From positions 5,642,001-5,706,000 of the forward strand of contig NZ_CP115669.1 of the NCBI RefSeq assembly GCF_029203285.1: 64,000 nt of DNA, given 5' to 3'. The notes beneath the pieces are model-generated. The model made no database searches, had not been told where the DNA came from, and was given only the letters and a program-made list of their open reading frames with translations. The stretch is from Pseudomonas sp. PSE14. GTDB lineage: Bacteria; Pseudomonadota; Gammaproteobacteria; Pseudomonadales; Pseudomonadaceae. How positions within the stretch are numbered: the stretch's first letter is position 1; every line of letters begins with the position of its first letter. Position numbers and translations under genes: made by a program. Shown here one piece after another: positions 1 to 14,227 of the stretch.

Positions 1-286
1 ATTCCTCGCCGATCAGGAAGGCCTGGGCCAGGCCGTCCGGCGAGGGCTGCACTGCATAGTGCAGGTGCAGGCCGAACTGCTCGCCGTCGCCGAGCAGCGC
101 GCGGAAGTTGGGCAGGTCGGCGGGGGTGCAGATCAGCAGGATCTCGTCGATGCCGGCGAGCATCAGCACCGACAGCGGGTAGTACACCATCGGCTTGTCG
201 AAGATCGGCAGCAATTGCTTGGAGACCCCGAGGGTGATGGGGTGCAGGCGGGTGCCGGAGCCGCCGGCGAGAATGATGCCTTTCAT
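1..286 (-). CDS. rmlA: Glucose-1-phosphate thymidylyltransferase, N-terminal part (cut by window edge)
   Basis: Makes dTDP-glucose from glucose-1-phosphate and dTTP, the first step to dTDP-L-rhamnose. The 95 visible codons start [16 protein letters not shown], the nucleotide-binding signature loop of the family, followed by [19 protein letters not shown], also typical of RmlA. An AAGGAGG ribosome site lies about 7 bases before the ATG. The gene runs off the left edge, so roughly two thirds of it is missing. It is the last visible gene of the minus-strand EPS operon, which suggests that the polysaccharide contains rhamnose or another dTDP-6-deoxysugar. Confidence 0.93.
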
Positions 287-322: not shown

Positions 323-1414
323 CTACTCGAGCGGTTTGAAGCGCGGCAGATAGTCCGCGCGTTCGGCTAGAAAGGAGTCGATCAGGGTGGAGAGACGCAG
401 GGCGGAAAGGTCCCAGGAGAAGCGCAGGACATTCTCCAACCCGGCATTGCGCAGGCTGGTGCGCAGCTTCCCATCCCGCAGCACGCGGCGCATCGCCGTA
501 GCCAGGGCCTGGGTATCGGCGGGGTCGAAGTACAGCGCCGAGGTGCCCAGCACTTCGGGGACCGAGGCACTGCGAGCAGCGATCACCGGGCAACCGCAGG
601 CCTGCGCCTCCAGCGGCGGTATGCCGAACCCTTCGTAGAGCGACGGGAAAACGAAGGCTGCCGCGCCGCGGTACTCCTCGATCAGCTGCTGGTCGTCGAT
701 GCGTCCCAGCCAGCGCACGCGTTCGTGTTGCCCGCTGGACTGCAAGCGGTAATCGACGAAGGCACGGGCGGCCGAGCCGACGATATGCAGGTCGACGTCC
801 AGATCGTGCAGCAGGTCGAACGCCTCGATCATCCGTGCGAAGTTCTTGTGCGCGGCCGGCGAGGACACCGCCAGCAGATAGGGTCGCCCGCCCGAGACCA
901 CGGGACCGGGGCAGAACGCGGAGGACACCGCGTTGGCGATCACGTGGATGCGCTCGCTGGGAAAGTGGTAGTGCGAGGCGATCTCCTGGCGGGAGAACTC
1001 GCTGACGCTGACCAGCGCCAGCACCCGCCGCAGCATCAGCGGGGTCAACGTCCGGTACAGCGCGCGAAAGCGCCAGGAAAAGCTCTCGGGATGCCGCACG
1101 TAGGCGATGTCGTGGTGCGTCGCCAATTGCGGGCCATAGGCCAATGGTGCGGTATTGCACAGCGACACCAGTAGCGGCCGTCCGTTGCGCAACAGCCACA
1201 GCGGCAGGTCGACCTGCTCCCACAGGTGCCCGTGGTTGCGCCCGATGCGCTCGACGTGCAGGCGCTGGGCGACCTCCTCCCGCTGCAGCGGGCCGGGTGG
1301 CGCAACGAAATGCACGTCGCCGCGCAAGCGCGCCAGCGACAGCGAGATCTGCTCGGCGAAGCGCTGCACGCCACTGATTTCCTGGGACAGGAAACGCGCG
1401 TTGATAACGATCAT
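323..1414 (-). CDS. Glycosyltransferase family 4 (GT-B fold)
   Basis: A 363-residue retaining glycosyltransferase, probably cytoplasmic, adding one sugar to the lipid-linked EPS repeat unit. The N-terminus (MIVINARFLSQ, then SGVQRFAEQI) is the usual opening of this subgroup. Near residue 265 it has SLYEGFGIPPLEAQACG, the E-x7-E nucleotide-sugar motif of GT4. The open frame continues well upstream, but that extension is arginine-rich shadow sequence of the neighbouring gene. The MIVINARF start fits the family and the gap to the upstream gene. It follows the polymerase gene by 32 bases. Donor and acceptor cannot be told from sequence; mannosyl- and rhamnosyltransferases both look like this. Confidence 0.9.
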   Translation of the reverse strand: MIVINARFLSQEISGVQRFAEQISLSLARLRGDVHFVAPPGPLQREEVAQRLHVERIGRNHGHLWEQVDLPLWLLRNGRPLLVSLCNTAPLAYGPQLATHHDIAYVRHPESFSWRFRALYRTLTPLMLRRVLALVSVSEFSRQEIASHYHFPSERIHVIANAVSSAFCPGPVVSGGRPYLLAVSSPAAHKNFARMIEAFDLLHDLDVDLHIVGSAARAFVDYRLQSSGQHERVRWLGRIDDQQLIEEYRGAAAFVFPSLYEGFGIPPLEAQACGCPVIAARSASVPEVLGTSALYFDPADTQALATAMRRVLRDGKLRTSLRNAGLENVLRFSWDLSALRLSTLIDSFLAERADYLPRFKPLE

Positions 1415-1446: not shown

Positions 1447-4071
1447 TCAGCGCAGTGACAGCTGATAGCCCGGAGCGCTGCGCAGCAGCGTCGGAGCGTT
1501 GTCGATACGGATGTCGGCCTGGCACGGCCCTCCACCCGCGGGGCAGTTCCAGGGCACCTTTTCGCCCGGATTGGCGCTGACGCCATCGAAGTCCCGCAGG
1601 CGCCAGAGGAGATCGGAGCTGCCCGGCTGGCTGGTGATCTTCAGGCTCTGTTCGCGGCCCAGGGTCCAGGCCACCAGGATTTCGTCGCCGGCCTTGGCAA
1701 AACGCAGCAGGTAGACGTTCGGGTCGTCGTTGGGCACCCGGCCGGCGAAGTGGTACTGCCCGATGATCGCCGCCACGCTGGTCATCGCGTGGTAGGCCGG
1801 CTTGGGCTTGCCGTCGGCGGTGAGCAGGCCGAAGTTGTGCTCCATCTCGCGGCGGTCGATGCCGTCGTCCACCAGGTCGTACCACCAGGAGCCCTTCACG
1901 TTCGGCAAGCTGCGCAGCAGGAAGTAGGCACGCGCCAGGTAGGCCGCCTGGCGTTCGCGGCTGAGTCCGCAGCCGCCTTCGTTGGCCGGCCAGCTGAACT
2001 CGGTGAAGTACAACGGCACCGGCTTGCCGGCGGCCCGTTCGAGCTGCTGGTTGACGCCCGTGAACCACCCCAGCCAGTTTTCCGGTGTCGCCAGGTCGCC
2101 CTCGCAGTACACCGACGGGTGCAGCGACAGGCCGTCCGTGACGTCCAGCAAGCCACCGGCAACCAGGCGCTCGGCGAAGCCCTCGCGGATACCGCGCAGC
2201 GTCACGGCGCCGGCGATGATCCTGGCCTGTGGGTCTTCCTCGCGGATCACCTTCGCCGTGGCACGGACCAGAACCAGGTACTCGTCGCTGAAAGCCTTGT
2301 CGGTGGGGTTCTCCACATCCCATTCGTTCCAGATCTCGTAGATCGCCACCTGGCCCTTGAAGCTGCGCACCACATAGCGCACATAGCGCAGGTAGGCGGC
2401 ACGGGAAGCCTCGTCACGGGGCTTGGCGTTGCCGTGGAACTGGTTCTCCACCCCCAGGATCAGCAAGGTGCTGATGCCCAGGCTGCGGGTACTGCGCAGC
2501 TGAGTGCGCCAACTGTCGTAGATGGACAGCACATTGGGTTCGCGCTCGACGCTGGACCAGAAGGCATCGTCGCGGAACGACTGGATGCCGGCCTGTTGTG
2601 CCAGGCGATTGATGCCGTCGCGGTTGCCCGGGCGGCTGTTCTGATGGGTACTGACGCCGACGATGAAATCCGGCGCAACCGACCCGGCCACCGGCGCCTC
2701 GTTGGCCAGTGCGCGGGGCGCCTGCCCTGCTCCGGCGAACAGCAGCGCGCCACACAGCAGCAGGCCGAGCAGCCCGCCCTTGCCCTGCAGACGCCAGGCC
2801 TGCGGCGCCGGCGGCGTGACCAGCTCCTCCGGCAAGCGCAACGCACGGCCGATGGCCAGGCCCAGGAACAGGCTCGGCACCTGCGCTTCCAGTACGTCGC
2901 TGGTCCAGCCCATCAGCAGGATGCAGTAGGTGATGCCCAGCAGCGCACGGGCCTCGCTTCCCGGCTGGCGCTGCAGACGCATCAGCAGCGGGATCGCCAG
3001 CACGTAGAGCCCAATACCTGCGACACCGAACAGCAGCCAGAGGTACAACAGCGTATTGTCCGCCACCGCCAACTGCTCGATGCCGAACACCGGGTAGGCC
3101 GCGTAGGCGCTGCCGGTCATGCCCAGTCCGGCGCCGGTGTAGGCCCAACCGTTGTAGGTCATCACCTTGACCAGGTCCGGCCAGGTGTGGACCAGGCGCT
3201 CCACCATCGAGCCGAGCAGATTGTCGCTGCTGGAACTGGCCAGGTACGGCTCGACATCCACGATCAAGCCGTAGAGCGGTAGCGCCAGCGCGCCGAACAC
3301 CACCACCAGCGTGGCCAGCAGGAATATCAGACGGTACCCGGCAGTGTTCATCACCAGCAGGACGATGACGAAGGCGACGGCGGAGGTCTTGTTGGTGGTC
3401 AGGACGATGCCCACCAGTGCCACCAGGTAGATCAGCCAGCGCAGCAGCAGCGACAGGCGGAACGAGCCCAGGTACAGGCTGAAGATCGACAACATGAAAG
3501 CCAGGCTCGCTGACATCCGCGAGAAGCCGGCGATGCGGTCCAGTCCGTAGGCGCTCCAGGCGCGGTTGCCGCTGATCACGACACCGGCCATGGCGTAGGT
3601 GTATCCCTTCCAGGGCACGTTGCCGAGCATGTCCAGCGCAATGCCCGCCAGCGAGGCGACGAAGCAGAAGAAGACGACCCAGCCCAGCATCTTGCGGTGC
3701 ATCTCCAGATAGGTTCCGCAGAGCAGGCCGAATAGCAGCGGCGCATAGATGAAAATGCTGAAGGCCCCGGCCAGCGAGTTCGCGCCATGCAGCAGGCCGA
3801 GCATCAGCGAGGCCGCCGCCAGGATCAGCAGCAGCCACAGGCCGCGCTGCTGCGGCCGGGTGAACAGCTCCCAGGCCACCGCGATCACGCAGCCCACCTT
3901 CGGCACGTAGACCAGCGCCGACAGGCCGACCTGGTCGGCGTAGAAGCGCAACGCCCCGTTGAAGGTCTCCACCAGCAGCACCGCCACCACTACCCACAGA
4001 ACCAGCAGCGAGCGGTCGAAAGTGATGCCACGGGAGGGCTCAAAGCGTGGATACGGCGATTGCAGATCCAT
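1447..4071 (-). CDS. Wzy-like polysaccharide polymerase fused to a periplasmic glycoside hydrolase
   Basis: An 874-residue two-part protein. Residues about 20-415 form roughly ten hydrophobic segments with the layout of O-antigen polymerase/ligase (Wzy/WaaL-like) proteins. A further hydrophobic stretch at 433-450 ends in APRALANEA, resembling a signal-peptide end, and leads into a soluble domain (about 468-775). That domain has the (beta/alpha)8 clan GH-A pattern: EIWNEWD with the expected acid/base Glu583 after Asn582, and YFTEFSWP with the expected nucleophile Glu691. This spacing is close to that of PslG-type GH39 enzymes. The last 100 residues look like a beta-sandwich. The ATG at 4071 has GGAG six bases upstream and overlaps the preceding gene by 32 bases; a GTG four codons earlier is possible. 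The likely role is chain polymerisation coupled to trimming in the periplasm. The fusion lies in one uninterrupted frame. Confidence 0.85.
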   Translation of the reverse strand: MDLQSPYPRFEPSRGITFDRSLLVLWVVVAVLLVETFNGALRFYADQVGLSALVYVPKVGCVIAVAWELFTRPQQRGLWLLLILAAASLMLGLLHGANSLAGAFSIFIYAPLLFGLLCGTYLEMHRKMLGWVVFFCFVASLAGIALDMLGNVPWKGYTYAMAGVVISGNRAWSAYGLDRIAGFSRMSASLAFMLSIFSLYLGSFRLSLLLRWLIYLVALVGIVLTTNKTSAVAFVIVLLVMNTAGYRLIFLLATLVVVFGALALPLYGLIVDVEPYLASSSSDNLLGSMVERLVHTWPDLVKVMTYNGWAYTGAGLGMTGSAYAAYPVFGIEQLAVADNTLLYLWLLFGVAGIGLYVLAIPLLMRLQRQPGSEARALLGITYCILLMGWTSDVLEAQVPSLFLGLAIGRALRLPEELVTPPAPQAWRLQGKGGLLGLLLCGALLFAGAGQAPRALANEAPVAGSVAPDFIVGVSTHQNSRPGNRDGINRLAQQAGIQSFRDDAFWSSVEREPNVLSIYDSWRTQLRSTRSLGISTLLILGVENQFHGNAKPRDEASRAAYLRYVRYVVRSFKGQVAIYEIWNEWDVENPTDKAFSDEYLVLVRATAKVIREEDPQARIIAGAVTLRGIREGFAERLVAGGLLDVTDGLSLHPSVYCEGDLATPENWLGWFTGVNQQLERAAGKPVPLYFTEFSWPANEGGCGLSRERQAAYLARAYFLLRSLPNVKGSWWYDLVDDGIDRREMEHNFGLLTADGKPKPAYHAMTSVAAIIGQYHFAGRVPNDDPNVYLLRFAKAGDEILVAWTLGREQSLKITSQPGSSDLLWRLRDFDGVSANPGEKVPWNCPAGGGPCQADIRIDNAPTLLRSAPGYQLSLR

Positions 4072-5275
4072 GGCGGGCTCCACGGCTGAGCAGGGTGCGG
4101 TTCAGGACGGCTTCGTACTCGTCGAGCATCCGCTCGACGCTGAGCATCGACGCCACGCTATCGCGGGCGTGGGAGGCCAGGCGCTGGCGTAGCGACGCGT
4201 CCTTGCTGAGGCGGCGCAGCGCTTCGCCCAGCGAGTCGGGGCGCTCCGGCGAGCAGTGCAGACCGTTGACTCCGTCCCGGACGATCTCGACGAGGCCGCC
4301 ACGGGTCGAAACAATCACCGGCAGGTGATGGGCGCAGGCTTCCAGCGCCACCAGGCCGAAGGATTCCGTGCCGATACTGGGCACCACGGCCACGTCGATC
4401 TCGGCGAAGAATCCGCAGGAATTGCGATAGCCAACGAAGTGCACGTGCTGCGGGTCGGCGAGGGATTTCAGCGTGTTCACATAATCCGCCTCACCACGTC
4501 CTGCGATCAGCAGCGAAGCATCCAGCGCCTGCTTCTGGAACTGCTCGATCAGCCACTCCACGCCCTTGTTCGGGGTGAGCGCGCCGATGAAGCCGAAACG
4601 CAGCGGACGGCGTGGCGTGACCTCGGCCGGCGCCTCCTGCCAGGGTATGAACGGCGCGCAGTTGTAGATGACATAGCGCTGGCTGTGGGCGAAGTAGCCC
4701 GCATCGACCAGGGCAGACAGTTGGTAGCGGCTGACGCCGACCACCGTGTCGACCCGTGCCGACGCCTGCGCATGGGAGCGCCGCAGCAGCGCGCAGGAGC
4801 CGCATTGCTGCTGGCAGTGCTTGCCCTTGTGGAAACGCATCCCGCGCGGGCAGGTGAGGTACTGGTCGTGCAGGACCTGCACGATGGGCATCCCGGCATC
4901 GCGGATCGCATCCCAGGCGGCGATCGACCAGCCCGCCAGGTTATGGCATACCACGAGGTCCGGCCGGTTCTGCGCCAGCACCTGCGCCAGCACATCGCGC
5001 ATGCCCCGGTTGTAGCGGTCCAGCGCATGCCAGGCGAGCCGCCGCAGCGGGCCGGGGCGCTGGCCGGCGAACGGCCAGTAGAGGTTGCGCAGGCCGGCGC
5101 GCAACACCGGCACGCCATTGTGCAATTCGCCGTGCACGCCGGCGTCGGGGCCCGTGCTCAGCACCTGCACCGCATGGCCGCGCCCCTGCAGGCCCTCGAC
5201 CATGGCTTGCACCATCAGCTCCGCGCCGCCGCCGATGTGCGGGGCATAGAGGGTGTTGAGGAACAGGAGTTTCAT
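4040..5275 (-). CDS. Glycosyltransferase family 4
   Basis: A 411-residue GT-B glycosyltransferase. The N-terminal Rossmann half opens MKLLFLNTLYAPHIGGGAE, with the glycine loop typical of GT4. The C-terminal half carries FGFIGALTPNKGVEWLI and the E-x7-E motif ESFGLVALE. An unusual cysteine-rich loop in the middle (CPRGMRF...CQQQCGSC, about residues 154-175) is seen in a subset of these enzymes and might bind metal. The start ATG overlaps the stop of the upstream GT2 gene (ATGA), indicating translational coupling. The 3' end overlaps the polymerase gene. Probably adds a sugar to the EPS repeat unit; specificity unknown. Confidence 0.9.
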   Translation of the reverse strand: MKLLFLNTLYAPHIGGGAELMVQAMVEGLQGRGHAVQVLSTGPDAGVHGELHNGVPVLRAGLRNLYWPFAGQRPGPLRRLAWHALDRYNRGMRDVLAQVLAQNRPDLVVCHNLAGWSIAAWDAIRDAGMPIVQVLHDQYLTCPRGMRFHKGKHCQQQCGSCALLRRSHAQASARVDTVVGVSRYQLSALVDAGYFAHSQRYVIYNCAPFIPWQEAPAEVTPRRPLRFGFIGALTPNKGVEWLIEQFQKQALDASLLIAGRGEADYVNTLKSLADPQHVHFVGYRNSCGFFAEIDVAVVPSIGTESFGLVALEACAHHLPVIVSTRGGLVEIVRDGVNGLHCSPERPDSLGEALRRLSKDASLRQRLASHARDSVASMLSVERMLDEYEAVLNRTLLSRGARHGSAIAVSTL

Positions 5276-6270
5276 AGCGGATAGGTCCGGCTCATGCCCA
5301 GTGCGCCGGACTCGCCGTCGCGGATCGCACGCAGCAGCAGTTGCAGGCGCCCTTCGCGGCCATGCCGGCGGGCGAAGAAGTGCAACAGGCGCAGGAATAC
5401 CCAGCGGTTGAAGCGGTACATCAGCGGCGAGGTGACCCACAGGTTCTTGTCGAACCAGGCCTGGTTGCGCGCGGCGTAGTAGGCGCGCAGGTCCGAGCTG
5501 CCGAGCAGGTAGGTCTCGTAGATGTTGGAGGTGCGCTGCTTGAGGTTCCAGGAGCGCTCCAGGTCATCCAGCCCGGCATCGGGTACCAGATAGAGATGGC
5601 CGCCGCAGGCGCTGATGCGAAAGGTGTATTCGGTGTCGTCGGCATAGAGCACCAGCTCGCGGCGCGGCAGGCCGATGCGCTCGATCAGCCGGCGGTGCGC
5701 CAGCAGCCCGCCGTAGTAGGCGAATGGCAGCTCCAGCAAAGGCTCCAGTGGGTGCGGGTGGGGCTTGCCCCAAGGCGTGCGGCGCCAGAGCTTGTAGGGC
5801 AGTTGGTGCACGTGGAAGCCGAAGTAGCTGGAGCGCGGCGGCGCGATGAAGCGTCTCGGCACGCCAGCGACGACGTCCGCCTGGTGCTCCGCGCGAAAGC
5901 CCAGCACCGCAGTCTGGTCCGCCCCGTGGCGTTCCACGCAGTCGAGCAGGCGCTGCTTGAGCAGGGGGAAGGCGCCCGGCATCGGCGCGTTGTCGTCATC
6001 CATCAGCCAGATGTAATCGCAGCCGGTGTTCAACGCCGCCGCGATGCCCACGCAATAGCCGTTGGCCGAGCCAGTGTTGCTGCTGAGCTCGATCACCTGG
6101 ACGCGGTTGGGCCAGAGCTTGAACAAGTGGTCCAGTTCGGCCACCGAGGCGTTGCTGACGACGATCGCACGGGCTATGTCCGGCTCGCGCAAGGCCCTGG
6201 CGAGCAGTTCCTCCAGGTACGCCAGGCGATCGCCATAGGTCAGCGTCACCAGTACGGTCGATCCACTCAT
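5272..6270 (-). CDS. Glycosyltransferase family 2, rhamnosyltransferase-like
   Basis: A 332-residue GT-A type enzyme. The opening STVLVTLTYGDRLAYLEELL and the DxD-type metal site in WLMDDDNAPMPG (about residue 97) place it in GT2. The pattern near ELSSNTGSANGYCVGI and the later LVLYADDTEYTFR resemble rhamnosyl/galactofuranosyltransferases of the GlfT/WbbL kind. An AAGGAG site precedes the ATG at the right distance. It overlaps the next GT4 gene by 4 bases. With rmlA nearby, a rhamnosyl transfer step is a fair guess but not proven. Confidence 0.88.
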   Translation of the reverse strand: MSGSTVLVTLTYGDRLAYLEELLARALREPDIARAIVVSNASVAELDHLFKLWPNRVQVIELSSNTGSANGYCVGIAAALNTGCDYIWLMDDDNAPMPGAFPLLKQRLLDCVERHGADQTAVLGFRAEHQADVVAGVPRRFIAPPRSSYFGFHVHQLPYKLWRRTPWGKPHPHPLEPLLELPFAYYGGLLAHRRLIERIGLPRRELVLYADDTEYTFRISACGGHLYLVPDAGLDDLERSWNLKQRTSNIYETYLLGSSDLRAYYAARNQAWFDKNLWVTSPLMYRFNRWVFLRLLHFFARRHGREGRLQLLLRAIRDGESGALGMSRTYPL

Positions 6271-6292: not shown

Positions 6293-6814
6293 TCAGCGGG
6301 CACTCAGGCCCACCCTCTTTTTTTCCCCGCCGGCCGCCGAGAGCTGGCTCAGCGGCACCCGCACGCGCTGTTCGCGCTGCAACAGGTTGAGCAGGATCAG
6401 CGCCCGCTCGGCGCCGTCGTCGCAGAGGAAGATCGCTTCCACCTCGCAGTTGCCGGCGCAGTGCAGGTGCACCACCTGGCCCTGCTGGAAGTGCCCGGAC
6501 GCGCGCTCCGGCATCGCCTGGGAACGCTGGCGGATGTCCTCCACCAGCTCATCGGCCACTGGCAAGGGTTGCGGACCGAAGCTGACGATGCGCGCCACGC
6601 CGCGGGTCGAGCGAATCGGGAACCAGTTGTCGTGCTGCTGATCCAGGTGGATGAACAGGTAGCCGGGGAACAGGGGTTGCGGGCGCGGCCCCTGCCCGAC
6701 CACTGGCCGGTAGCAGCAGAAGCCCTGACGCGTCAGGTTTTCCTCGGCGCGCAGCTCCTGGTGTGGTTTGGTCTGGATCAGGTACCAGCGATGAAGGGGT
6801 TCAGCGTGACTCAT
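6293..6814 (-). CDS. rfaH: RfaH-type NusG paralogue (operon-specific antiterminator)
   Basis: A 173-residue protein with an N-terminal NGN domain and a short C-terminal KOW-like domain. Hallmarks shared with E. coli RfaH are RWYLIQTKPHQELRAEENL at the start, PLFPGYLFIHLD, RSTRGVARIVSFG, and near the end EAIFLCDDGAERALILLNLL. RfaH is recruited to RNA polymerase paused at ops DNA and suppresses Rho termination while recruiting ribosomes. Here the gene is embedded in the EPS operon, downstream of the Wzc kinase gene, and ops-like sites lie in the operon leader (see 14746-14759 and 14834-14847). It therefore probably controls its own operon. Function by homology is strong; the target is inferred from position. 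Confidence 0.9.
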   Translation of the reverse strand: MSHAEPLHRWYLIQTKPHQELRAEENLTRQGFCCYRPVVGQGPRPQPLFPGYLFIHLDQQHDNWFPIRSTRGVARIVSFGPQPLPVADELVEDIRQRSQAMPERASGHFQQGQVVHLHCAGNCEVEAIFLCDDGAERALILLNLLQREQRVRVPLSQLSAAGGEKKRVGLSAR

Positions 6815-6972: not shown

Positions 6973-9186
6973 TCAGTTGCGGTTGTCGTAGCGGTAGGCG
7001 TAGGCGCCGTAGTCGTAGGCGGCGGTCGAGGCCTTGCGCCTGACTCCATTGAGGATCGCGCCCTGCAGATGGATGCCGTTCTGGCCCAGGCGGCGGCGGG
7101 CGGTATCGATTTCGCTGGTCGGGCTCTGGCCGAAGCGGGTCACCAGCAGGCTGATGCCGCACAGCCGGCCGATCAGCGACGCGTCGGTCACCGCCAGCAC
7201 CGGCGGAGTGTCGACGATGACCAGGTCGTACATCGCCGAAGCGTCGCGCAGCAGCTGGGCGAAGCTTTCATTCATCAGCAGTTCCGACGGGTTCGGCGCG
7301 GCGAAACCACAGGAGATGAAGTCCAGGTCCGACACCTCGGTCGGCAGGATCACCTCGCTCAGCGGGCGACGGGAACTCAGCGCATCGGACAGGCCATGCC
7401 GCGGGGTCAGGCCGAACACGCGGTGCAGGTAGCCCTTGCGCATGTCACCGTCGATCAGCAGGGTGCGCAGGCCGGACTGGGCAATGATCGCCGCCAGGTT
7501 GCAGGAGACGAACGACTTGCCGGCGCCCGGCGCCGGGCTGGTGAGCATCACCACGTTGTTGCGTGCCTCCAGCAGGGCGAAATGCAGGTTGGTGCGCAGG
7601 CTGCGCAGCGCCTCGTTGGCCAGGTCGCCCGGATTGGCGGCGGCCAGCAGCATGGGCGCATGCGCGGTGATATTCCCCTTGCGCTCCCTTTCCAGGCGCT
7701 CCTGCTGACGGGAGTACGGCACCGCCGCGAGCACCGAGAGGCCGAGCTGTTCGATCGCCTCGGGATTCTCCACGCCCCGGTAGAAGGCCTGGCGCAGGAA
7801 CAGGATGCCCATCGAGACACAGAAGCCGAGCAGGGTGGCGAGCAGCACGATGATCTTGCGCATCGGCTTGGCCGGTTTTTCCACGTCAGCCTGGGCGGTG
7901 TCGATCACCCGCACGTTGCCGATGGTGCCGGCGCGCAGGATGTCCTGCTCCTGGGCCTTGTCCAGCACGGTGGTATAGGTCTGCTGGGTAACGCGCATGT
8001 CACGGGAGAGACGCAGCAGTTCCTGCTGGGTGGAAGGCAGGGCCTGGATACGCCCCTGCAACGCCTGCTTGCGGGCCTCCAGGCTCGCCACCTGCTTGAG
8101 CAGCGCCTGGTAGGTCGGATGACTGGGGGCGTACAGGCGGTCGTACTCGGCGCGCTTGAGCTTGAGGTCGGAGAGCTGGTTGTCGATGCCGACGACCTGG
8201 TCCAGCACGCCACGGGTCTCGACGCTGATGTCGGCGGACTTGGCGCTGGTCTGGTAGGCGTTGTAGGCGGCCTCGGCGCGCTCCAGCTCCATGCGTACCA
8301 TCGGCAGCTGCGAGCGCAGGAACTGCAGGCGCTGGGAGGCTTCGGCGGAACTGCGCTCGACGTTCTGCAGCACGTAGAGATGGCTGATCTTGTCGAGGAT
8401 GAGGTCGGCCTGCCCGGCGTTGGGGTCCTCCAGGGTCATGTAGATGATTCCGGAATCCTTGCCGGCCTCGACCACCTTGAGCGCCTTCTGATACTCCAGG
8501 GTGGTGGTCAGCAGGCGGTTGCGGGTGAGGATGAACTCGGTGCCCGGATGTGCCACCAGCGCGTCCACCTCGATGGTGAAGCCCTTCTCGATGACGGTCT
8601 TGTTCACCTCGCCGCGCAGCAGCTGTTCCCCGTCGGCATTGAGCAGGACATAGGCGCCGCCATTCTCGGTGACCAGGGTCAGCGGTTCGCCGAGATACTC
8701 TTCGGGCACTTCCAGCTGGTACACCTTGATCTGCTCGCCGCCCCAGGCGAAGGCGCCCATGCCGAACAGCGGCGAGGCCAGCGGCTGGGCCGGGGTCGGC
8801 TTGAAGTGCCGCGCCATGTAATCGCCCAGCAGCGGCATGTGCCGGGGCTTGGCAACGATATAGAGCTTGAGCAGCTCCACCGCCTTGCCGAGCACCGCAC
8901 GGGATTTCAACAGCTCGATCTCGGTGGCGGCCAGGGACACCGAGTCGGGGCGGTTGATCACCTCGGGAGTGCCGTTGAGGCCGTTCTTCTTCTGCTCGAC
9001 CTGGATCATCGCGCCCGAGACGTAGATCGGCGTGGCGATCAGCGCATAGACCAGTCCCAGGGTGGCGAACAGCCCGGTGACGATGAGGATCATTCGCTTG
9101 TGGTCAAAGAGCAGGCGTAGCAGGCCGGCCACGTCGATTCGGGTGTCCTGGACATTCTCCAGGGACGAGTGGGGCATGATACTCAT
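6973..9186 (-). CDS. wzc: Wzc-type chain-length regulator and bacterial tyrosine autokinase
   Basis: A 737-residue inner-membrane protein. TM1 is at about 31-52, followed by the periplasmic Wzz domain with a long coiled-coil stretch (about 270-430), then TM2 at about 444-465. The cytoplasmic BY-kinase domain has Walker A PAPGAGKS (551-558), Walker A' LLIDGD (576-581) and Walker B VIVDTPP (656-662). The C-terminal tail has five tyrosines (724, 726, 729, 731, 733), the expected autophosphorylation cluster. It co-polymerises with export proteins to set EPS chain length. The start at 9186 has GGAGG ten bases upstream; a second ATG three codons later is possible. The partner exporter (Wza) and phosphatase (Wzb) are not in this window. 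Confidence 0.93.
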   Translation of the reverse strand: MSIMPHSSLENVQDTRIDVAGLLRLLFDHKRMILIVTGLFATLGLVYALIATPIYVSGAMIQVEQKKNGLNGTPEVINRPDSVSLAATEIELLKSRAVLGKAVELLKLYIVAKPRHMPLLGDYMARHFKPTPAQPLASPLFGMGAFAWGGEQIKVYQLEVPEEYLGEPLTLVTENGGAYVLLNADGEQLLRGEVNKTVIEKGFTIEVDALVAHPGTEFILTRNRLLTTTLEYQKALKVVEAGKDSGIIYMTLEDPNAGQADLILDKISHLYVLQNVERSSAEASQRLQFLRSQLPMVRMELERAEAAYNAYQTSAKSADISVETRGVLDQVVGIDNQLSDLKLKRAEYDRLYAPSHPTYQALLKQVASLEARKQALQGRIQALPSTQQELLRLSRDMRVTQQTYTTVLDKAQEQDILRAGTIGNVRVIDTAQADVEKPAKPMRKIIVLLATLLGFCVSMGILFLRQAFYRGVENPEAIEQLGLSVLAAVPYSRQQERLERERKGNITAHAPMLLAAANPGDLANEALRSLRTNLHFALLEARNNVVMLTSPAPGAGKSFVSCNLAAIIAQSGLRTLLIDGDMRKGYLHRVFGLTPRHGLSDALSSRRPLSEVILPTEVSDLDFISCGFAAPNPSELLMNESFAQLLRDASAMYDLVIVDTPPVLAVTDASLIGRLCGISLLVTRFGQSPTSEIDTARRRLGQNGIHLQGAILNGVRRKASTAAYDYGAYAYRYDNRN

Positions 9187-9217
9187 GGACTTCCATCCTC
9201 CGGTGACGTGACGCGGC

Positions 9218-10147
9218 TCAGCGCGCGTGGATCGGGTTCAGCCGCTTGAGCAGGTTCAGGCTGTGATTGCCGATCAGCAGCAGGAACGCCTCGATCTTGC
9301 GCGGCAGGGGAATCGCGGCCATCGACAGGCGGCAGACCTGGACCAGGAAGTACTCGTGCAGCGCCTGGTCGCCGATGCGCTGGTAGTAGCGCGACAGGCA
9401 GTAGTAGGTGTGCAGCGTCATCCGTTGCTGCACGCGGTCCGCCTGCATGGAGAAGATCCCGCCCTTGTGCCGGCGGTAGGCGGCCGGGCCGATCTGTTCG
9501 AGGAACTTGCCCTTGCCATAGGCCCCCAGCAGCGACCACCAGCACAGGTCCACCATGCGGGTGGTGCGCAGCTCCTCGGGCATCTCGCCCAGGACATTGC
9601 GGAAGCAGGCAGTCAGGGTGGAAATCGCACGTCCCTGTTGCAGTTCCCGGCGGCTGGCATCACGGCGGAAGCGCCCGGTGAGCTGCCGCGGCTTGATGAC
9701 GCCGTTCTCGTCGAAGACATAGGCATCGTGATAGGTGATCACGTAGTCCGGATGGCGCTCGAGGAAATCGACCTGGATCTGCAGCTTGTGCGGATCGGTC
9801 CAGAAGTCGTCGCCCTCGCAATAGGCGATGTAGCGGCCACGCGCCTTGCGGAAGGTCGGCATGCCGTGGGAGACGCCCTTGGAGTACTGGTTTTCCTTGT
9901 GGAAGATCGGCTTGATGATGTGCGGGTAGCGCGCGGCGTAGTCGGCGATCAGCTCGGCGGTGCCATCGGTGGAGGCGTCGTCGTTGATCACCACCTCGAA
10001 GCGGAAGTCGGTGATCTGTTCGAGGAAACTGTCCAGCGTGCGACCGATGTAGTTCACCTGGTTGTAGGCCAGGCACACGATACTCAGCAGCGGTTCAGGG
10101 GCTTCCGGCCAGTTGGACAGAATCTGCAGCTCGGAGCGGATATCCAT
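9218..10147 (-). CDS. Glycosyltransferase family 2
   Basis: A 309-residue GT-A enzyme. It has LLSIVCLAYNQVNYIGRTLDS, then VINDDASTDGT (metal-nucleotide site) and YCEGDDFWTD, the second acidic motif typical of family 2 enzymes with tailored acceptor loops. A C-terminal hydrophobic stretch (KIEAFLLLIGNHSLNLLKRL) may be amphipathic and membrane-associated. It lies directly after the flippase gene with two bases between, and about 30 bases before wzc. Probably adds one residue of the EPS repeat; sugar unknown. Confidence 0.9.
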   Translation of the reverse strand: MDIRSELQILSNWPEAPEPLLSIVCLAYNQVNYIGRTLDSFLEQITDFRFEVVINDDASTDGTAELIADYAARYPHIIKPIFHKENQYSKGVSHGMPTFRKARGRYIAYCEGDDFWTDPHKLQIQVDFLERHPDYVITYHDAYVFDENGVIKPRQLTGRFRRDASRRELQQGRAISTLTACFRNVLGEMPEELRTTRMVDLCWWSLLGAYGKGKFLEQIGPAAYRRHKGGIFSMQADRVQQRMTLHTYYCLSRYYQRIGDQALHEYFLVQVCRLSMAAIPLPRKIEAFLLLIGNHSLNLLKRLNPIHAR

Positions 10148-10149
10148 GT

Positions 10150-11670
10150 CTAGGCACTCGGCTTCTGGAACGGTTTGAACAGACGCAGCAACGCGGCAGC
10201 GCAGCCCACGCCCACCAGGGTCAGGGTGATCAGCCCGCAGGCGGCCAGCGCCAGCAGCAGGGACAGGCGCTCGCCGGTACGAGCCAGCAACGCGTAGACG
10301 GGTTCGCTGAGCAGCAGCCCGGCACCGCTCAGCGCGGCGATCTGCAGGGTGTCGCGCAGCCAGGGCCAGTGCAGGTCATCGCCAAAGCGGCGATGCACGA
10401 TCGGCGGCCAGATCAGGAAGGACGCCAGGCGCAGGCCGAACCAGCACAGCGCCACGCCGAGCACGCCGTACAGGTAAGCGCTGGCCACCACCAGCGGAAT
10501 GCTCACCAGCGCCGACACCACGCTGTACCAGACGTGCAGGTGCAGCTGGCCGTGGGCGTACTGCAGGTAGAACTGGAAACTGCTCACCGCCATCAGGCCG
10601 GCGCCGAGCACATACCAGACCAGTACGGGCTGGCACCATCTGGCGGCCTCGGGATCGCCGCTCCAGGCCAGGATCAGGTCGTGACCATGAGCGGCGATCA
10701 CCGCGACCATCGGGAGCAGCAGCACACAGACGAAACGGTTCGCCTTCAGGTAGAGCTGCTGCATGTCATCGTGACGCCCCTCGGCGATCAGCATGGTCAT
10801 GCGCGGCAGCAGCGACTGCGCCAACGGGTTGACCAGACTGAGGATGCCGCCGCTGACCAGCGCCACCAGGGAGAAATAGCCGTAGTCTCGCAACGGCATC
10901 AGGCTCGACAGCAACACCTTGTCGAGTTGGGTGAGGATGATCCACAGCCCGGAGGTGAAGCTCATCCCCAGAGCGAAGGGAATCACCGGCCGCAACGTGT
11001 TCCAGCAGAACCGCGTGAACAGCCGCACCTCCATCCACAGGTAAGCCTTGGCGCCGAGCATCAGGGTTTCGAGCAGCGACACCGCCACCTGGAATTCGAA
11101 GAACACCAGCGGGTCCTGGCTGACCTTGACCACCAGCAGCAGGCCGCCGAAGTAACGCAGGGTGGTGATGAAGACGTTGATCCCGTTGATCCAGCCGTGC
11201 AGCTCCAGCCCCTGCAGCGCGCTGCGGTACAGCGTGCCGTACAGGCGCAGGGCGACCAGCAGGCCCATCAGGCTGATGCACTGCGCCACCAGCGCCGGGC
11301 TCAGCACGTGGACGTTCAGCCAGCGCCCGGCGATCCAGGAACTGCCGGCATACACCGCCAGCGAACTGAGCAGGGTCAGCGGCAGCAGGATCAGCTCGAA
11401 GGAGCGCAGCAGGCTCGCCTGGCCATAGGACTCGCCCTCGGTACCGCGGACGTGGGCCACCTCCCGCACCAGGGCTGGCGAGAGCCCGACATCCAGCAGC
11501 AGCAGCCAGGACTGCAGGACCGCGAAGAAACCGATCAGACCATAGGCCTCGGCGCCCAGATGGCCGAGATAGAACGGCTGGATCAGGATGCCGATGACGA
11601 TCGCATAAGCCTGCCCCACGTAGTTCAGCAGGGTATTGCGGATCATCGACAGCGAGCGCTTGGCCGACAT
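10150..11670 (-). CDS. wzx: Wzx-type lipid-linked oligosaccharide flippase
   Basis: A 506-residue integral membrane protein with about 12-14 hydrophobic helices and few charged residues between them, the MOP-superfamily polysaccharide transporter layout. The N-terminal NTLLNYVGQAYAIVIGILIQPFYLGHLG and AYGLIGFFAVLQSWLLLLDVGL are characteristic of Wzx flippases. It moves undecaprenyl-PP-linked repeat units across the inner membrane to the polymerase. GAGGAA precedes the ATG. The gap to the upstream aminotransferase gene is 10 bases, so they are surely cotranscribed. With a Wzy-like protein and Wzc nearby, the system is the Wzx/Wzy-dependent type. Confidence 0.92.
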   Translation of the reverse strand: MSAKRSLSMIRNTLLNYVGQAYAIVIGILIQPFYLGHLGAEAYGLIGFFAVLQSWLLLLDVGLSPALVREVAHVRGTEGESYGQASLLRSFELILLPLTLLSSLAVYAGSSWIAGRWLNVHVLSPALVAQCISLMGLLVALRLYGTLYRSALQGLELHGWINGINVFITTLRYFGGLLLVVKVSQDPLVFFEFQVAVSLLETLMLGAKAYLWMEVRLFTRFCWNTLRPVIPFALGMSFTSGLWIILTQLDKVLLSSLMPLRDYGYFSLVALVSGGILSLVNPLAQSLLPRMTMLIAEGRHDDMQQLYLKANRFVCVLLLPMVAVIAAHGHDLILAWSGDPEAARWCQPVLVWYVLGAGLMAVSSFQFYLQYAHGQLHLHVWYSVVSALVSIPLVVASAYLYGVLGVALCWFGLRLASFLIWPPIVHRRFGDDLHWPWLRDTLQIAALSGAGLLLSEPVYALLARTGERLSLLLALAACGLITLTLVGVGCAAALLRLFKPFQKPSA

Positions 11671-12814: not shown

Positions 12815-14227
12815 TCAACCCAGCGCGGACAGCACGAAAGGCGTGCCGTCGAGCGGGGTTTCCAGTGACGGCTCGGGTGCTTGCGGGGCGTGGCCGGCCA
12901 GGTGTTCCTGAAGGGCTTCGATGACCCTGCCGCTGGCGTCGTGGTGGAACTGCCAGACGCCATAGATGCGGCTGTCGAAGGAGCGCTCGCTGCCGAGCAT
13001 CGGGTTGGCCGCCAGCCCCGATCCGAGACCAAAGCTGTACAGCCCGGGGATCGGCTGGCCGTTGATATCGCGCAGGCAACCGGCGGCGTCAGAGTCCAGC
13101 CCGCCCTTGCTCTCGCGCACCTGCAGCGGCTCGCCGTTGGCGTGGCGCATTGCCGGCAGGCAGGGCTGATAACCGATGGCCTGGACCATCACACCCGGCT
13201 CGCTGCAACACCGTTCCAGGCGTTCGCGGGTAGCCGGCGAGCGGTCCTCCAGACGCAGCAGTTCAACCTTCACCCGAGTACCACTGACATGGCCGTTGGC
13301 GAGCACATCGGTACCCACCTGGTGGGCGCGGTAGCGCAGCCCGCCGGAGCGATTGACCCGGCCGGACACCGGGCAGACATCCATGCTCTCGTCCACCTGG
13401 TAACCGGCGGCCAGCGCCTCCTCGACACTCTCGAAGAACAGGCGGATCGGCGCGCGGTGCAGCAGGGTCAGCCGTTCCAGGCCGAGACAGTCGAGGGCGC
13501 AGGCCAGGTTGTCGAGCACCGAGAAGGCGCTGTGGGAGCCGCCGACCACGGTGAAATGGCTGTCCGGCGTCACCCGATCGCTGAACAGTTCCACCAGTTC
13601 GGCGGGACTCAGGCTGAGCAGCGCGTCGGAGGAATAGACGATGGGGCCGTCGGCGCTCAGGTGCAGGTCCTGCTCGGCCAGGCTCCAGTGCAGGTACTCG
13701 CGGGTCTGCCGGCCGCCGAGGTTGAGCACCAGGCCGCCCGCCTCCACCTGCCAGGAGCAGGAGCCGCTGCGCAGGGCCAGCTGGAAGCTGCCGTCGCCGT
13801 GGGCGGTGACCTTCTCGATGCGGGTACCCAGGGCGACATCGACACCCAGGTGCTGGGTGACGTAGCGCATGAACAGCGTCGAGGCGTGCGCCAACAACTC
13901 GCCCACTTGCGTGAGCATCGGCGCGCCGTGGGGATCGTCGCGCAGCCGGCGGAAGGCTGCCGAATGTTCCAGCGGCGCAAAGATCGGCAGCAGTGCCGGA
14001 TCACGCAGGCAGTCGAGGAACACATCGCCCACCGAGTTGGCGGTGATGTGGTAGTCCCCCAGGCGGCCACGGCCGACCGCCAGCGCGGCATCCACGACCA
14101 ACAGGCCGGAGCGCGCCAGGCTGGCGAGCGCTCCGGTCTTGTAGGCATTGAACAGAAACCCCATGCCGGCTGGGCCGGCACCACCGACCACACAGGCATA
14201 ACTGGAACGAAAGGATTGCTCGGTCAT
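12815..14227 (-). CDS. FAD/NAD(P)-dependent oxidoreductase, first gene of the EPS operon
   Basis: A 470-residue flavoprotein. Its N-terminal CVVGGAGPAGMGFL carries the GxGxxG dinucleotide fold. A second Rossmann-like site, FTVVGGSHSAFSVL (about residue 245), is arranged as in lysine/ornithine N-hydroxylases and related flavin monooxygenases. Toward the C-terminus, GLYSFGLGSGL resembles the FAD-closing motif of this superfamily. An AGGGAG site lies about 9 bases before the ATG. It ends directly before the aminotransferase frame. Substrate unknown: it could hydroxylate or oxidise a sugar or its amino/acyl group, or act on an unrelated metabolite. Such an enzyme is not part of standard Wzx/Wzy clusters. 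Confidence 0.75.
   Translation of the reverse strand: MTEQSFRSSYACVVGGAGPAGMGFLFNAYKTGALASLARSGLLVVDAALAVGRGRLGDYHITANSVGDVFLDCLRDPALLPIFAPLEHSAAFRRLRDDPHGAPMLTQVGELLAHASTLFMRYVTQHLGVDVALGTRIEKVTAHGDGSFQLALRSGSCSWQVEAGGLVLNLGGRQTREYLHWSLAEQDLHLSADGPIVYSSDALLSLSPAELVELFSDRVTPDSHFTVVGGSHSAFSVLDNLACALDCLGLERLTLLHRAPIRLFFESVEEALAAGYQVDESMDVCPVSGRVNRSGGLRYRAHQVGTDVLANGHVSGTRVKVELLRLEDRSPATRERLERCCSEPGVMVQAIGYQPCLPAMRHANGEPLQVRESKGGLDSDAAGCLRDINGQPIPGLYSFGLGSGLAANPMLGSERSFDSRIYGVWQFHHDASGRVIEALQEHLAGHAPQAPEPSLETPLDGTPFVLSALG

What the first reader, a model, noticed from the sequence alone, without database searches (positions are those of the whole stretch)
1447..4071. Polysaccharide polymerase and glycoside hydrolase in one polypeptide
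One unbroken frame joins a Wzy/WaaL-like multi-helix membrane part (residues about 20-415) to a signal-like helix and a clan GH-A domain with both catalytic glutamates in place (Glu583 and Glu691). In known EPS systems (for example Psl with PslG) the glycosidase is a separate periplasmic protein. A fusion would fix polymerase and hydrolase one to one at the growing chain and could set chain length, release chains or edit them. I do not know of a described example.
Basis: partly seen in the sequence, partly recalled or inferred. Interest (0 to 1): 0.82.

Follow-up and report, generated by a model that had tools for sequence, protein, structure and literature searches.

The report
Fused sugar-chain polymerase and hydrolase gene
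A group of Pseudomonas species makes a probable slime-polymer-building enzyme and a probable slime-cutting enzyme from one joined gene, although relatives keep them as two neighbouring genes; the hydrolase half still carries an export signal, so the protein may be cut apart again after it is made.

Summary
Window 4071-1447, minus strand, is one unbroken 874-codon frame: an 11-12-helix part resembling Wzy/O-antigen ligases, then a GH39-like hydrolase with both catalytic glutamates. It is no artefact: 16 of 25 genomes of the genus (own included) carry it unbroken, and the fused forms make one group in the polymerase tree. It lies in a Wzx/Wzy exopolysaccharide cluster largely collinear with the published EPS273 locus of P. 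stutzeri, where the two proteins (EPS273-K and -J) are separate. In 62 of the 70 named loci I had with both halves, they are adjacent separate genes, 12 overlapping as ATGA and 18 in one frame with only stops between. So this is an in-frame fusion of a known pair, not a new system. In 28 of those 62 (mostly one lineage) the pair lies with none of 13 cluster proteins nearby, which suggests a shared function. The linker is an intact signal peptide with a conserved signal-peptidase site (16 of 16). The hydrolase is therefore probably exported and at least partly released, weakening the fixed one-to-one idea. No structure could be modelled. The literature searches made showed no description of the fusion.

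The parts
1447..4071 (-). fused polymerase-hydrolase gene, 874 aa (stop at 1449-1447)
   Evidence: 16 of 25 genomes of the genus
2839..4071 (-). polymerase part, residues 1-411, 11-12 membrane helices, Wzy_C/O-antigen-ligase-like
   Evidence: hydropathy; PF04932 in 10 of 19 aligned sequences, not in this one; separate gene in relatives
2773..2838 (-). presumed cytoplasmic tail of the polymerase and n-region of the signal peptide, residues 412-433
2725..2772 (-). h-region of the internal signal peptide, residues 434-449
2704..2724 (-). c-region QAPRALA with the predicted signal-peptidase I site after Ala456
   Evidence: Ala at -1 in 16 of 16, A/S/T/G at -3 in 16 of 16, Pro at -5 in 16 of 16
1450..2667 (-). 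GH39-like hydrolase part, residues 469-874
2323..2325 (-). Glu583, predicted acid/base (aligned with PslG E165)
   Evidence: hand count
1999..2001 (-). Glu691, predicted nucleophile (aligned with PslG E276)
   Evidence: hand count
4040..5275 (-). GT4 glycosyltransferase (GT4a); overlaps the fusion gene by 32 bases
323..1414 (-). GT4 glycosyltransferase (GT4b) downstream of the fusion
5272..6270 (-). GT2 glycosyltransferase (GT2b)
6293..6814 (-). RfaH/NusG-like transcription factor
   Evidence: PF02357
6973..9186 (-). Wzc-type co-polymerase and tyrosine kinase
   Evidence: Wzz, WZC_N, GNVR
9218..10147 (-). GT2 glycosyltransferase (GT2a)
10150..11670 (-). Wzx-type flippase
   Evidence: PF13440
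11681..12814 (-). DegT/DnrJ aminotransferase
2..286 (-). RmlA-like nucleotidyltransferase, cut by the window edge; WbaP and Wza follow outside the window (L013)

Best explanation
The gene is the polymerase gene (Wzy) of an EPS273-type Wzx/Wzy exopolysaccharide pathway, fused in frame to the gene of its partner, a periplasmic GH39-like hydrolase that relatives encode next door. Shown: the fusion is real, the fused forms are one group in the polymerase tree, both halves are under purifying selection, and a signal peptide lies inside the fusion just before the hydrolase. Inferred: the membrane half is the polymerase; its C-terminus is cytoplasmic; the former signal peptide crosses the membrane as a further helix; the hydrolase folds in the periplasm. 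I think it most likely (about 60%) that signal peptidase I cuts after Ala456 in part or all of the molecules, giving equal amounts of polymerase and hydrolase made at the same spot. There the hydrolase trims or edits the growing or misrouted chain, as proposed for PslG in Psl, where the membrane-held full-length form helps synthesis and the released form goes with less polymer. The fusion's main effect would be co-translational 1:1 supply and placement; permanent tethering is possible but not required.
For: One open frame in 16 of 25 genomes of the genus; one group of 16 among 81 polymerase domains, SH-aLRT 100. Pathway around it: WbaP, Wzx, Wzc, Wza, RmlA and four GTs; apart from Wzx, Wzc and WbaP I see no other polytopic protein there (by eye; no membrane prediction was run on the neighbours). 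Split relatives: 62 of 70 named loci with both halves have adjacent separate genes, 12 of 62 overlapping as ATGA and 18 of 62 in the same frame with only a stop or stops between (for L033); of 55 hits in 198 family genomes 16 are fused, 29 split and adjacent, 10 polymerase only (my tally). The pair without any of 13 cluster proteins nearby in 28 of 62. Signal peptide and AxA-type site in 16 of 16; the 37 separate relatives printed begin with signal-peptide-like sequences (by eye). EPS273-K and -J (PMC5532660, passages and table). PslG: catalysis needed for normal Psl amounts, membrane-held full-length form versus shorter periplasmic form (PMC6813494, abstract, passages and section 3.1).
Against: Nothing shows cleavage, localisation or activity. 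The window's polymerase half has no Wzy_C hit, only 6 of 120 listed relatives carry that domain, and A6 has no PDB sequence match. The Wzy_C search of the genome found one other place, 328 kb away, and missed this gene, so another divergent polymerase could be missed too. The linker's h- and c-regions are the fastest-changing parts (pN/pS 0.76 and 0.71), so only single positions, not the whole site, are held. The 11 shorter linkers lack a basic residue close to the hydrophobic stretch. The GH39 score lies below Pfam's cut-off. The 28 pairs apart from the cluster are mostly one lineage, so perhaps one event. Strain 273's own sequences were not compared.
Confidence: 0.6

Rival explanations
1. 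The protein stays whole: the internal helix is a stable anchor and the hydrolase is permanently tethered to the polymerase, acting as a built-in chain-length or release device.
For: One frame in 16 of 16 distinct fused orthologues; for PslG the membrane-held full-length form is the one linked to synthesis (PMC6813494). Polymerase and hydrolase stay paired outside the cluster in one lineage.
Against: The linker keeps a standard signal-peptidase site, with Ala at -1, a small residue at -3 and Pro at -5 in 16 of 16, and a hydrophobic stretch of about 15-16 residues (by eye), short for a stable membrane helix.
Confidence: 0.3
2. Free hydrolase is also made by a second translation start at the old hydrolase start codon inside the fused gene.
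For: Codon 434 is ATG in 9 of 16 distinct fused genes, GTG in 2, TTG in 2, with an AGG five bases upstream in the ATG forms.
Against: In the window's own gene and two others the codon is CTG; the product would lack a basic n-region; position 434 is also just a hydrophobic position where M, V and L interchange.
Confidence: 0.1
3. The membrane half is a ligase (WaaL-like) or another transferase rather than the cluster's polymerase.
For: The Pfam family is named O-antigen ligase; EPS273-K was annotated 'O-antigen ligase'; in 28 of 62 loci the pair has none of 13 cluster proteins nearby.
Against: I see no other candidate polymerase in the cluster. The ligase motif recalled from memory, H[NSQ]-x9-GxxG, reads DN-x9-GxxG here (residues 338-352), without the ligase histidine.
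Confidence: 0.12
4. Artefact: frameshift or missed stop in one assembly.
For: None found.
Against: 16 genomes, one-contig and draft, the same frame, no stop; purifying selection on both halves.
Confidence: 0.01

Closest known systems
EPS273 locus of Pseudomonas (Stutzerimonas) stutzeri 273, genes eps273-K and eps273-J
   Same: The split locus L014 follows the letters Q-P-O-N-M-L-K-J-I-H of the paper with near-equal protein sizes; K (417 aa, 'O-antigen ligase') and J (445 aa, 'glycosyl hydrolase') bear neighbouring letters (PMC5532660, passages and table). The window has the same genes except N.
   Different: Two proteins there, one here. In the window GT2b lies between the RfaH-like gene and GT4a, no WbqC gene (N) lies between Wzc and RfaH, and RmlA, WbaP and Wza follow. 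The paper's mutants were in H+I and in O. Strain 273's sequence was not compared here; that the letters follow gene order is my reading of its figure legend.
PslG (with PslE, PslA, PslD) of the Psl pathway, P. aeruginosa
   Same: GH39-type hydrolase in an exopolysaccharide machine, both catalytic glutamates aligned, signal peptide, membrane-held and released forms.
   Different: Weak sequence match (32 bits); separate protein.
WadA, bimodular O-antigen ligase (GT121 + GT25)
   Same: A ligase-type membrane enzyme carrying a second enzyme domain in one chain (PMC10920833, passages).
   Different: The added domain is a glycosyltransferase, not a hydrolase.
Bradyrhizobium FbcH (cytochrome b/c1 precursor)
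   Same: Recalled, not read: a polytopic membrane protein fused to an exported protein with an internal signal peptide that signal peptidase cuts.
   Different: Unrelated proteins. One search found nothing; one paper listed (PMC12456017) holds the word fbcH and was not opened.
PelA hydrolase of the Pel pathway
   Same: A hydrolase inside a biosynthetic pathway that generates the low-molecular-weight form of its own polymer (PMC9894940, abstract).
   Different: Another pathway type and fold family (recalled); joined to a deacetylase (abstract of PMC10269871 in the listing), not to a polymerase.

Membership tests
Wzy/O-antigen ligase (Wzy_C, PF04932) superfamily | Pfam PF04932 match | tested here: inconclusive
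   No hit for P0001 nor for the L014 polymerase at E<=0.01; listed for 6 of 120 relatives; 10 of 19 in A6 at E<=0.01, best 7.7e-7
Wzy/O-antigen ligase (Wzy_C, PF04932) superfamily | about 10-14 membrane helices with one large periplasmic loop (recalled) | tested here: met
   11 segments plus a weak twelfth, 79-residue loop 267-345 (hydropathy only)
Wzy/O-antigen ligase (Wzy_C, PF04932) superfamily | polymerase activity | not testable with these tools
   needs a mutant and polymer sizing
Glycoside hydrolase family 39 / clan GH-A | sequence match to the family | tested here: inconclusive
   PF01229 E 5.4e-5, 22.6 bits against a cut-off of 26 for P0001; listed for 9 of the other 10 fused proteins; no PF01229 hit for the three separate hydrolases scanned
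Glycoside hydrolase family 39 / clan GH-A | two catalytic glutamates after strands 4 and 7 | tested here: met
   Glu583 and Glu691 align with PslG E165 and E276 (counted by hand) and are invariant in 12 of 12 rows; their strands were not modelled
Glycoside hydrolase family 39 / clan GH-A | (beta/alpha)8 fold | not tested
   structure tool switched off; inferred from homology to 5jvk, 4ekj and PslG
EPS273-type Wzx/Wzy exopolysaccharide cluster | flippase, co-polymerase kinase, RfaH-like factor, GTs, ligase-like and hydrolase genes in collinear order | tested here: met
   against the table; GT2b displaced and WbqC lacking in the window
EPS273-type Wzx/Wzy exopolysaccharide cluster | sequence relation to strain 273 itself | not tested
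   no locus of strain 273 was fetched
Psl | psl gene set | tested here: inconclusive
   the hydrolase is only a 32-bit match to PslG and the gene set differs from Psl as I recall it; psl genes were not searched
Signal-peptidase I substrate | n-, h-, c-regions and small residues at -3 and -1 | tested here: met
   -3/-1 in 16 of 16; in the 11 shorter forms no basic residue lies at 431-433 and Arg427 is the nearest
Signal-peptidase I substrate | actual cleavage | not testable with these tools
   needs protein

The most novel reading that the evidence does not exclude
The chain is not cut: polymerase and hydrolase work as one machine in which the hydrolase, held by a single helix beside the polymerase exit, sets chain length or releases chains, making a covalent length-control device for a Wzy polymer and a handle for the open question of why exopolysaccharide pathways encode hydrolases of their own product.
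Probability: 0.25. Interest if true: 0.7.

Novelty: new variant of a known kind. Interest (0 to 1): 0.45.

Why it matters
Why exopolysaccharide pathways carry a hydrolase, presumably for their own polymer, is unsettled. A natural polymerase-hydrolase fusion, plus a lineage in which the same two genes stay together away from the other pathway genes (28 loci), ties the hydrolase to the polymerase step rather than to later degradation. The clade with fused genes and its split relatives form a ready-made comparison: same cluster, same parts, joined or separate. If the internal signal peptide is cut, it is also a bacterial example of a polytopic enzyme and an exported enzyme made as one precursor.

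Tried and rejected

A second fusion in another genus: one search listed both halves of G143 in one 938-aa frame. Reading the DNA showed two in-frame TAG stops (same sequence as L033, P. duriflava), so it is split. The tool's open-frame value reads through stops; I therefore classed rows by stops and by separate matches.

Fusion elsewhere: a search with the hydrolase part gave 24 proteins, the 11 fused ones (window included) and 13 others, none with Wzy_C among its listed Pfam domains (several have none listed). Only proteins of 0.55-1.75 times the query length that share exact words are reached, so far-off fusions could be missed. No wider taxonomic search than the family sample (198 genomes) and a sample of relatives (95) was made.

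Only the polymerase tree was built (quick method, SH-aLRT alone, midpoint root); no hydrolase tree. That fusion, not splitting, is the derived state rests on how widespread the split form is.

Dropped before counting: L013, L019, L020 (same genes as L001, L006, L005); L025-L031 and L039 carry proteins identical to eight of the 16, so 16 distinct sequences are used for the linker. The 80 named loci are the best 80 of 348 confirmed, several from one species.

Literature: searches; one search found nothing. No paper on a Wzy-hydrolase fusion was seen in the listings; a 2025 review of Wzy polymerases (PMC12004945, word search of its text) has 'fused' once, about PhoA, and no 'hydrolase'. Most subscription journals are not held.

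Full report
1. The observation. The frame 4071-1447 on the minus strand codes for 874 residues without a stop. The N-terminal 411 residues hold 11 hydropathy segments, a probable twelfth under my threshold, and a 79-residue loop. The C-terminal part matches GH39 proteins: Pfam GH39 at 22.6 bits against a cut-off of 26, PDB 5jvk at 93-96 bits, GH39 beta-xylosidases and PslG. Glu583 and Glu691 line up with PslG's catalytic E165 and E276 (counted by hand; residue numbers from PMC6813494). The membrane half is weaker: no Wzy_C hit of its own, that domain listed for 6 of 120 relatives, 10 of 19 sequences in an alignment that includes those six, no PDB sequence match.

2. It is real. 16 of 25 genomes of the genus, own included, carry the whole fusion without a stop; nine have no match. 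Named carriers include P. nitroreducens, P. nicosulfuronedens and P. pseudonitroreducens. Among 16 distinct orthologues pN/pS is 0.33 for the polymerase and 0.23 for the hydrolase core. In a quick tree of 81 polymerase domains the 16 fused ones form one group with SH-aLRT 100.

3. Where it came from. The best 80 named loci (of 348 confirmed) fall into 8 fused, 62 with adjacent separate genes on one strand, and 10 with the hydrolase alone. In 12 of 62 split loci the genes overlap as ATGA; in 18 of 62 the two frames are the same with only a stop or stops between (for L033). A sample of 198 family genomes gave 55 with matches at E<=1e-30: 16 fused, 29 split and adjacent (22 as two matches, 7 as one match with an in-frame TGA), 10 with the polymerase only (my tally). 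So the fusion needed little more than loss of a stop between two neighbouring genes; that the split state is the older one is inferred from its spread.

4. Setting. The window and the stretch beside it (L013) hold Wza, WbaP, RmlA, four GTs, Wzx, Wzc, an RfaH-like factor and a DegT aminotransferase. The split locus L014 has Wzx, GT2, Wzc, WbqC, RfaH-like, GT4, polymerase, hydrolase, GT4, GT, GT2. That order and the sizes match the letters of the EPS273 locus: Q flippase 508, P GT2 309, O kinase 736, N WbqC 247, M regulator 175, L GT 419, K ligase-like 417, J hydrolase 445, I GT 372, H GT 405, E GT2 332 (PMC5532660, passages and table). The window differs in the place of one GT2 gene and in lacking WbqC there. 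Deleting O nearly abolished EPS273; the mutants named are O and H+I, not J or K.

5. The pair belongs together. In 28 of 62 split loci none of 13 cluster proteins (twelve from the window's cluster, and WbqC) has a match in the flanks held, usually 7 kb a side, yet polymerase and hydrolase are side by side; 27 of these 28 have an OpgD-like gene nearby (the other, L088, has almost no left flank) and 9 an OafA-like acyltransferase gene; 0 of the other 34 loci has either. These 28 lie in one set of 31 polymerases (SH-aLRT 99) with the three lone ones L015-L017, so they may stem from one relocation. In P. graminis and P. petrae the exopolysaccharide cluster itself keeps a second hydrolase but has no room for a polymerase between the GT4 gene and that hydrolase (L099, L103; the far ends of those clusters were not seen). 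This is the best evidence here for joint action.

6. The linker. Residues 427-456 read as a signal peptide inside the chain. Ala at -1, A/S/T/G at -3 and Pro at -5 are each found in 16 of 16; separate relatives start with signal-peptide-like sequences (37 rows printed before the script stopped, judged by eye). The rest of the linker changes fast (pN/pS 0.45-0.76), so the claim rests on these positions. An in-frame ATG at codon 434, perhaps the old hydrolase start, is present in 9 of 16, but the window's gene has CTG there.

7. Mechanism. With the polymerase C-terminus inside, the old signal peptide carries the hydrolase to the periplasm (inferred). PslG is the nearest studied case. Deletion and E165Q+E276Q both lower Psl; full-length PslG sits mainly in the inner membrane, helped by PslA, PslD and PslE; more released periplasmic PslG goes with less Psl (PMC6813494: abstract, passages, section 3.1). 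I infer that here too membrane-held hydrolase trims chains near the polymerase and that signal peptidase can release it. The fusion guarantees equal synthesis at the same place. Whether the protein is cut is undecided; I put 60% on cutting of at least part.

8. Known or new. Parts, pathway and neighbourhood are known kinds; the covalent union is a clade-specific variant. I saw no description of it in the listings. A comparable union of a ligase-type membrane enzyme with another enzyme is WadA (PMC10920833, passages). Hence 'new variant of a known kind'.

Noticed in passing
28 of 62 split loci, e.g. L041, L043, L044, L049, L066, L077 (about 7000-9640): Polymerase-hydrolase pair without any of 13 cluster proteins nearby; an OpgD-like gene (named by eye from its start) lies close in 27 of 28 and an OafA-like acyltransferase gene in 9 of 28, against 0 of 34 in the other split loci.
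   Followed up: partly
L099:5554-8230, L103:5521-8230: Exopolysaccharide clusters of P. graminis and P. petrae keep a hydrolase but have only about 90-120 bp between the GT4 gene and it, no polymerase; the polymerase may act from another locus.
   Followed up: partly
L015, L016, L017: A polymerase relative (41-43% identical) without hydrolase, outside any exopolysaccharide cluster seen; in L015 near an OafA-like acyltransferase. 10 of 198 family genomes have the polymerase only.
   Followed up: partly
window 12815-14227 (-): A 470-aa protein at the start of the cluster with a GGAGPAG stretch (FAD-binding-like, by eye) and no Pfam match at E<=0.001.
   Followed up: no
G000:C1:5314650-5315021 (L105): The only Wzy_C match in the genome, about 328 kb from the fusion gene; perhaps the O-antigen ligase or another polymerase. 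The search did not detect the fusion gene itself.
   Followed up: no
G133:C32:271504-272733: The separate hydrolase of this genome has an in-frame TGA, so it may be broken.
   Followed up: no
window 1750-3282 (+): A 510-codon open frame antisense to the fusion gene; probably only a result of high G+C.
   Followed up: no
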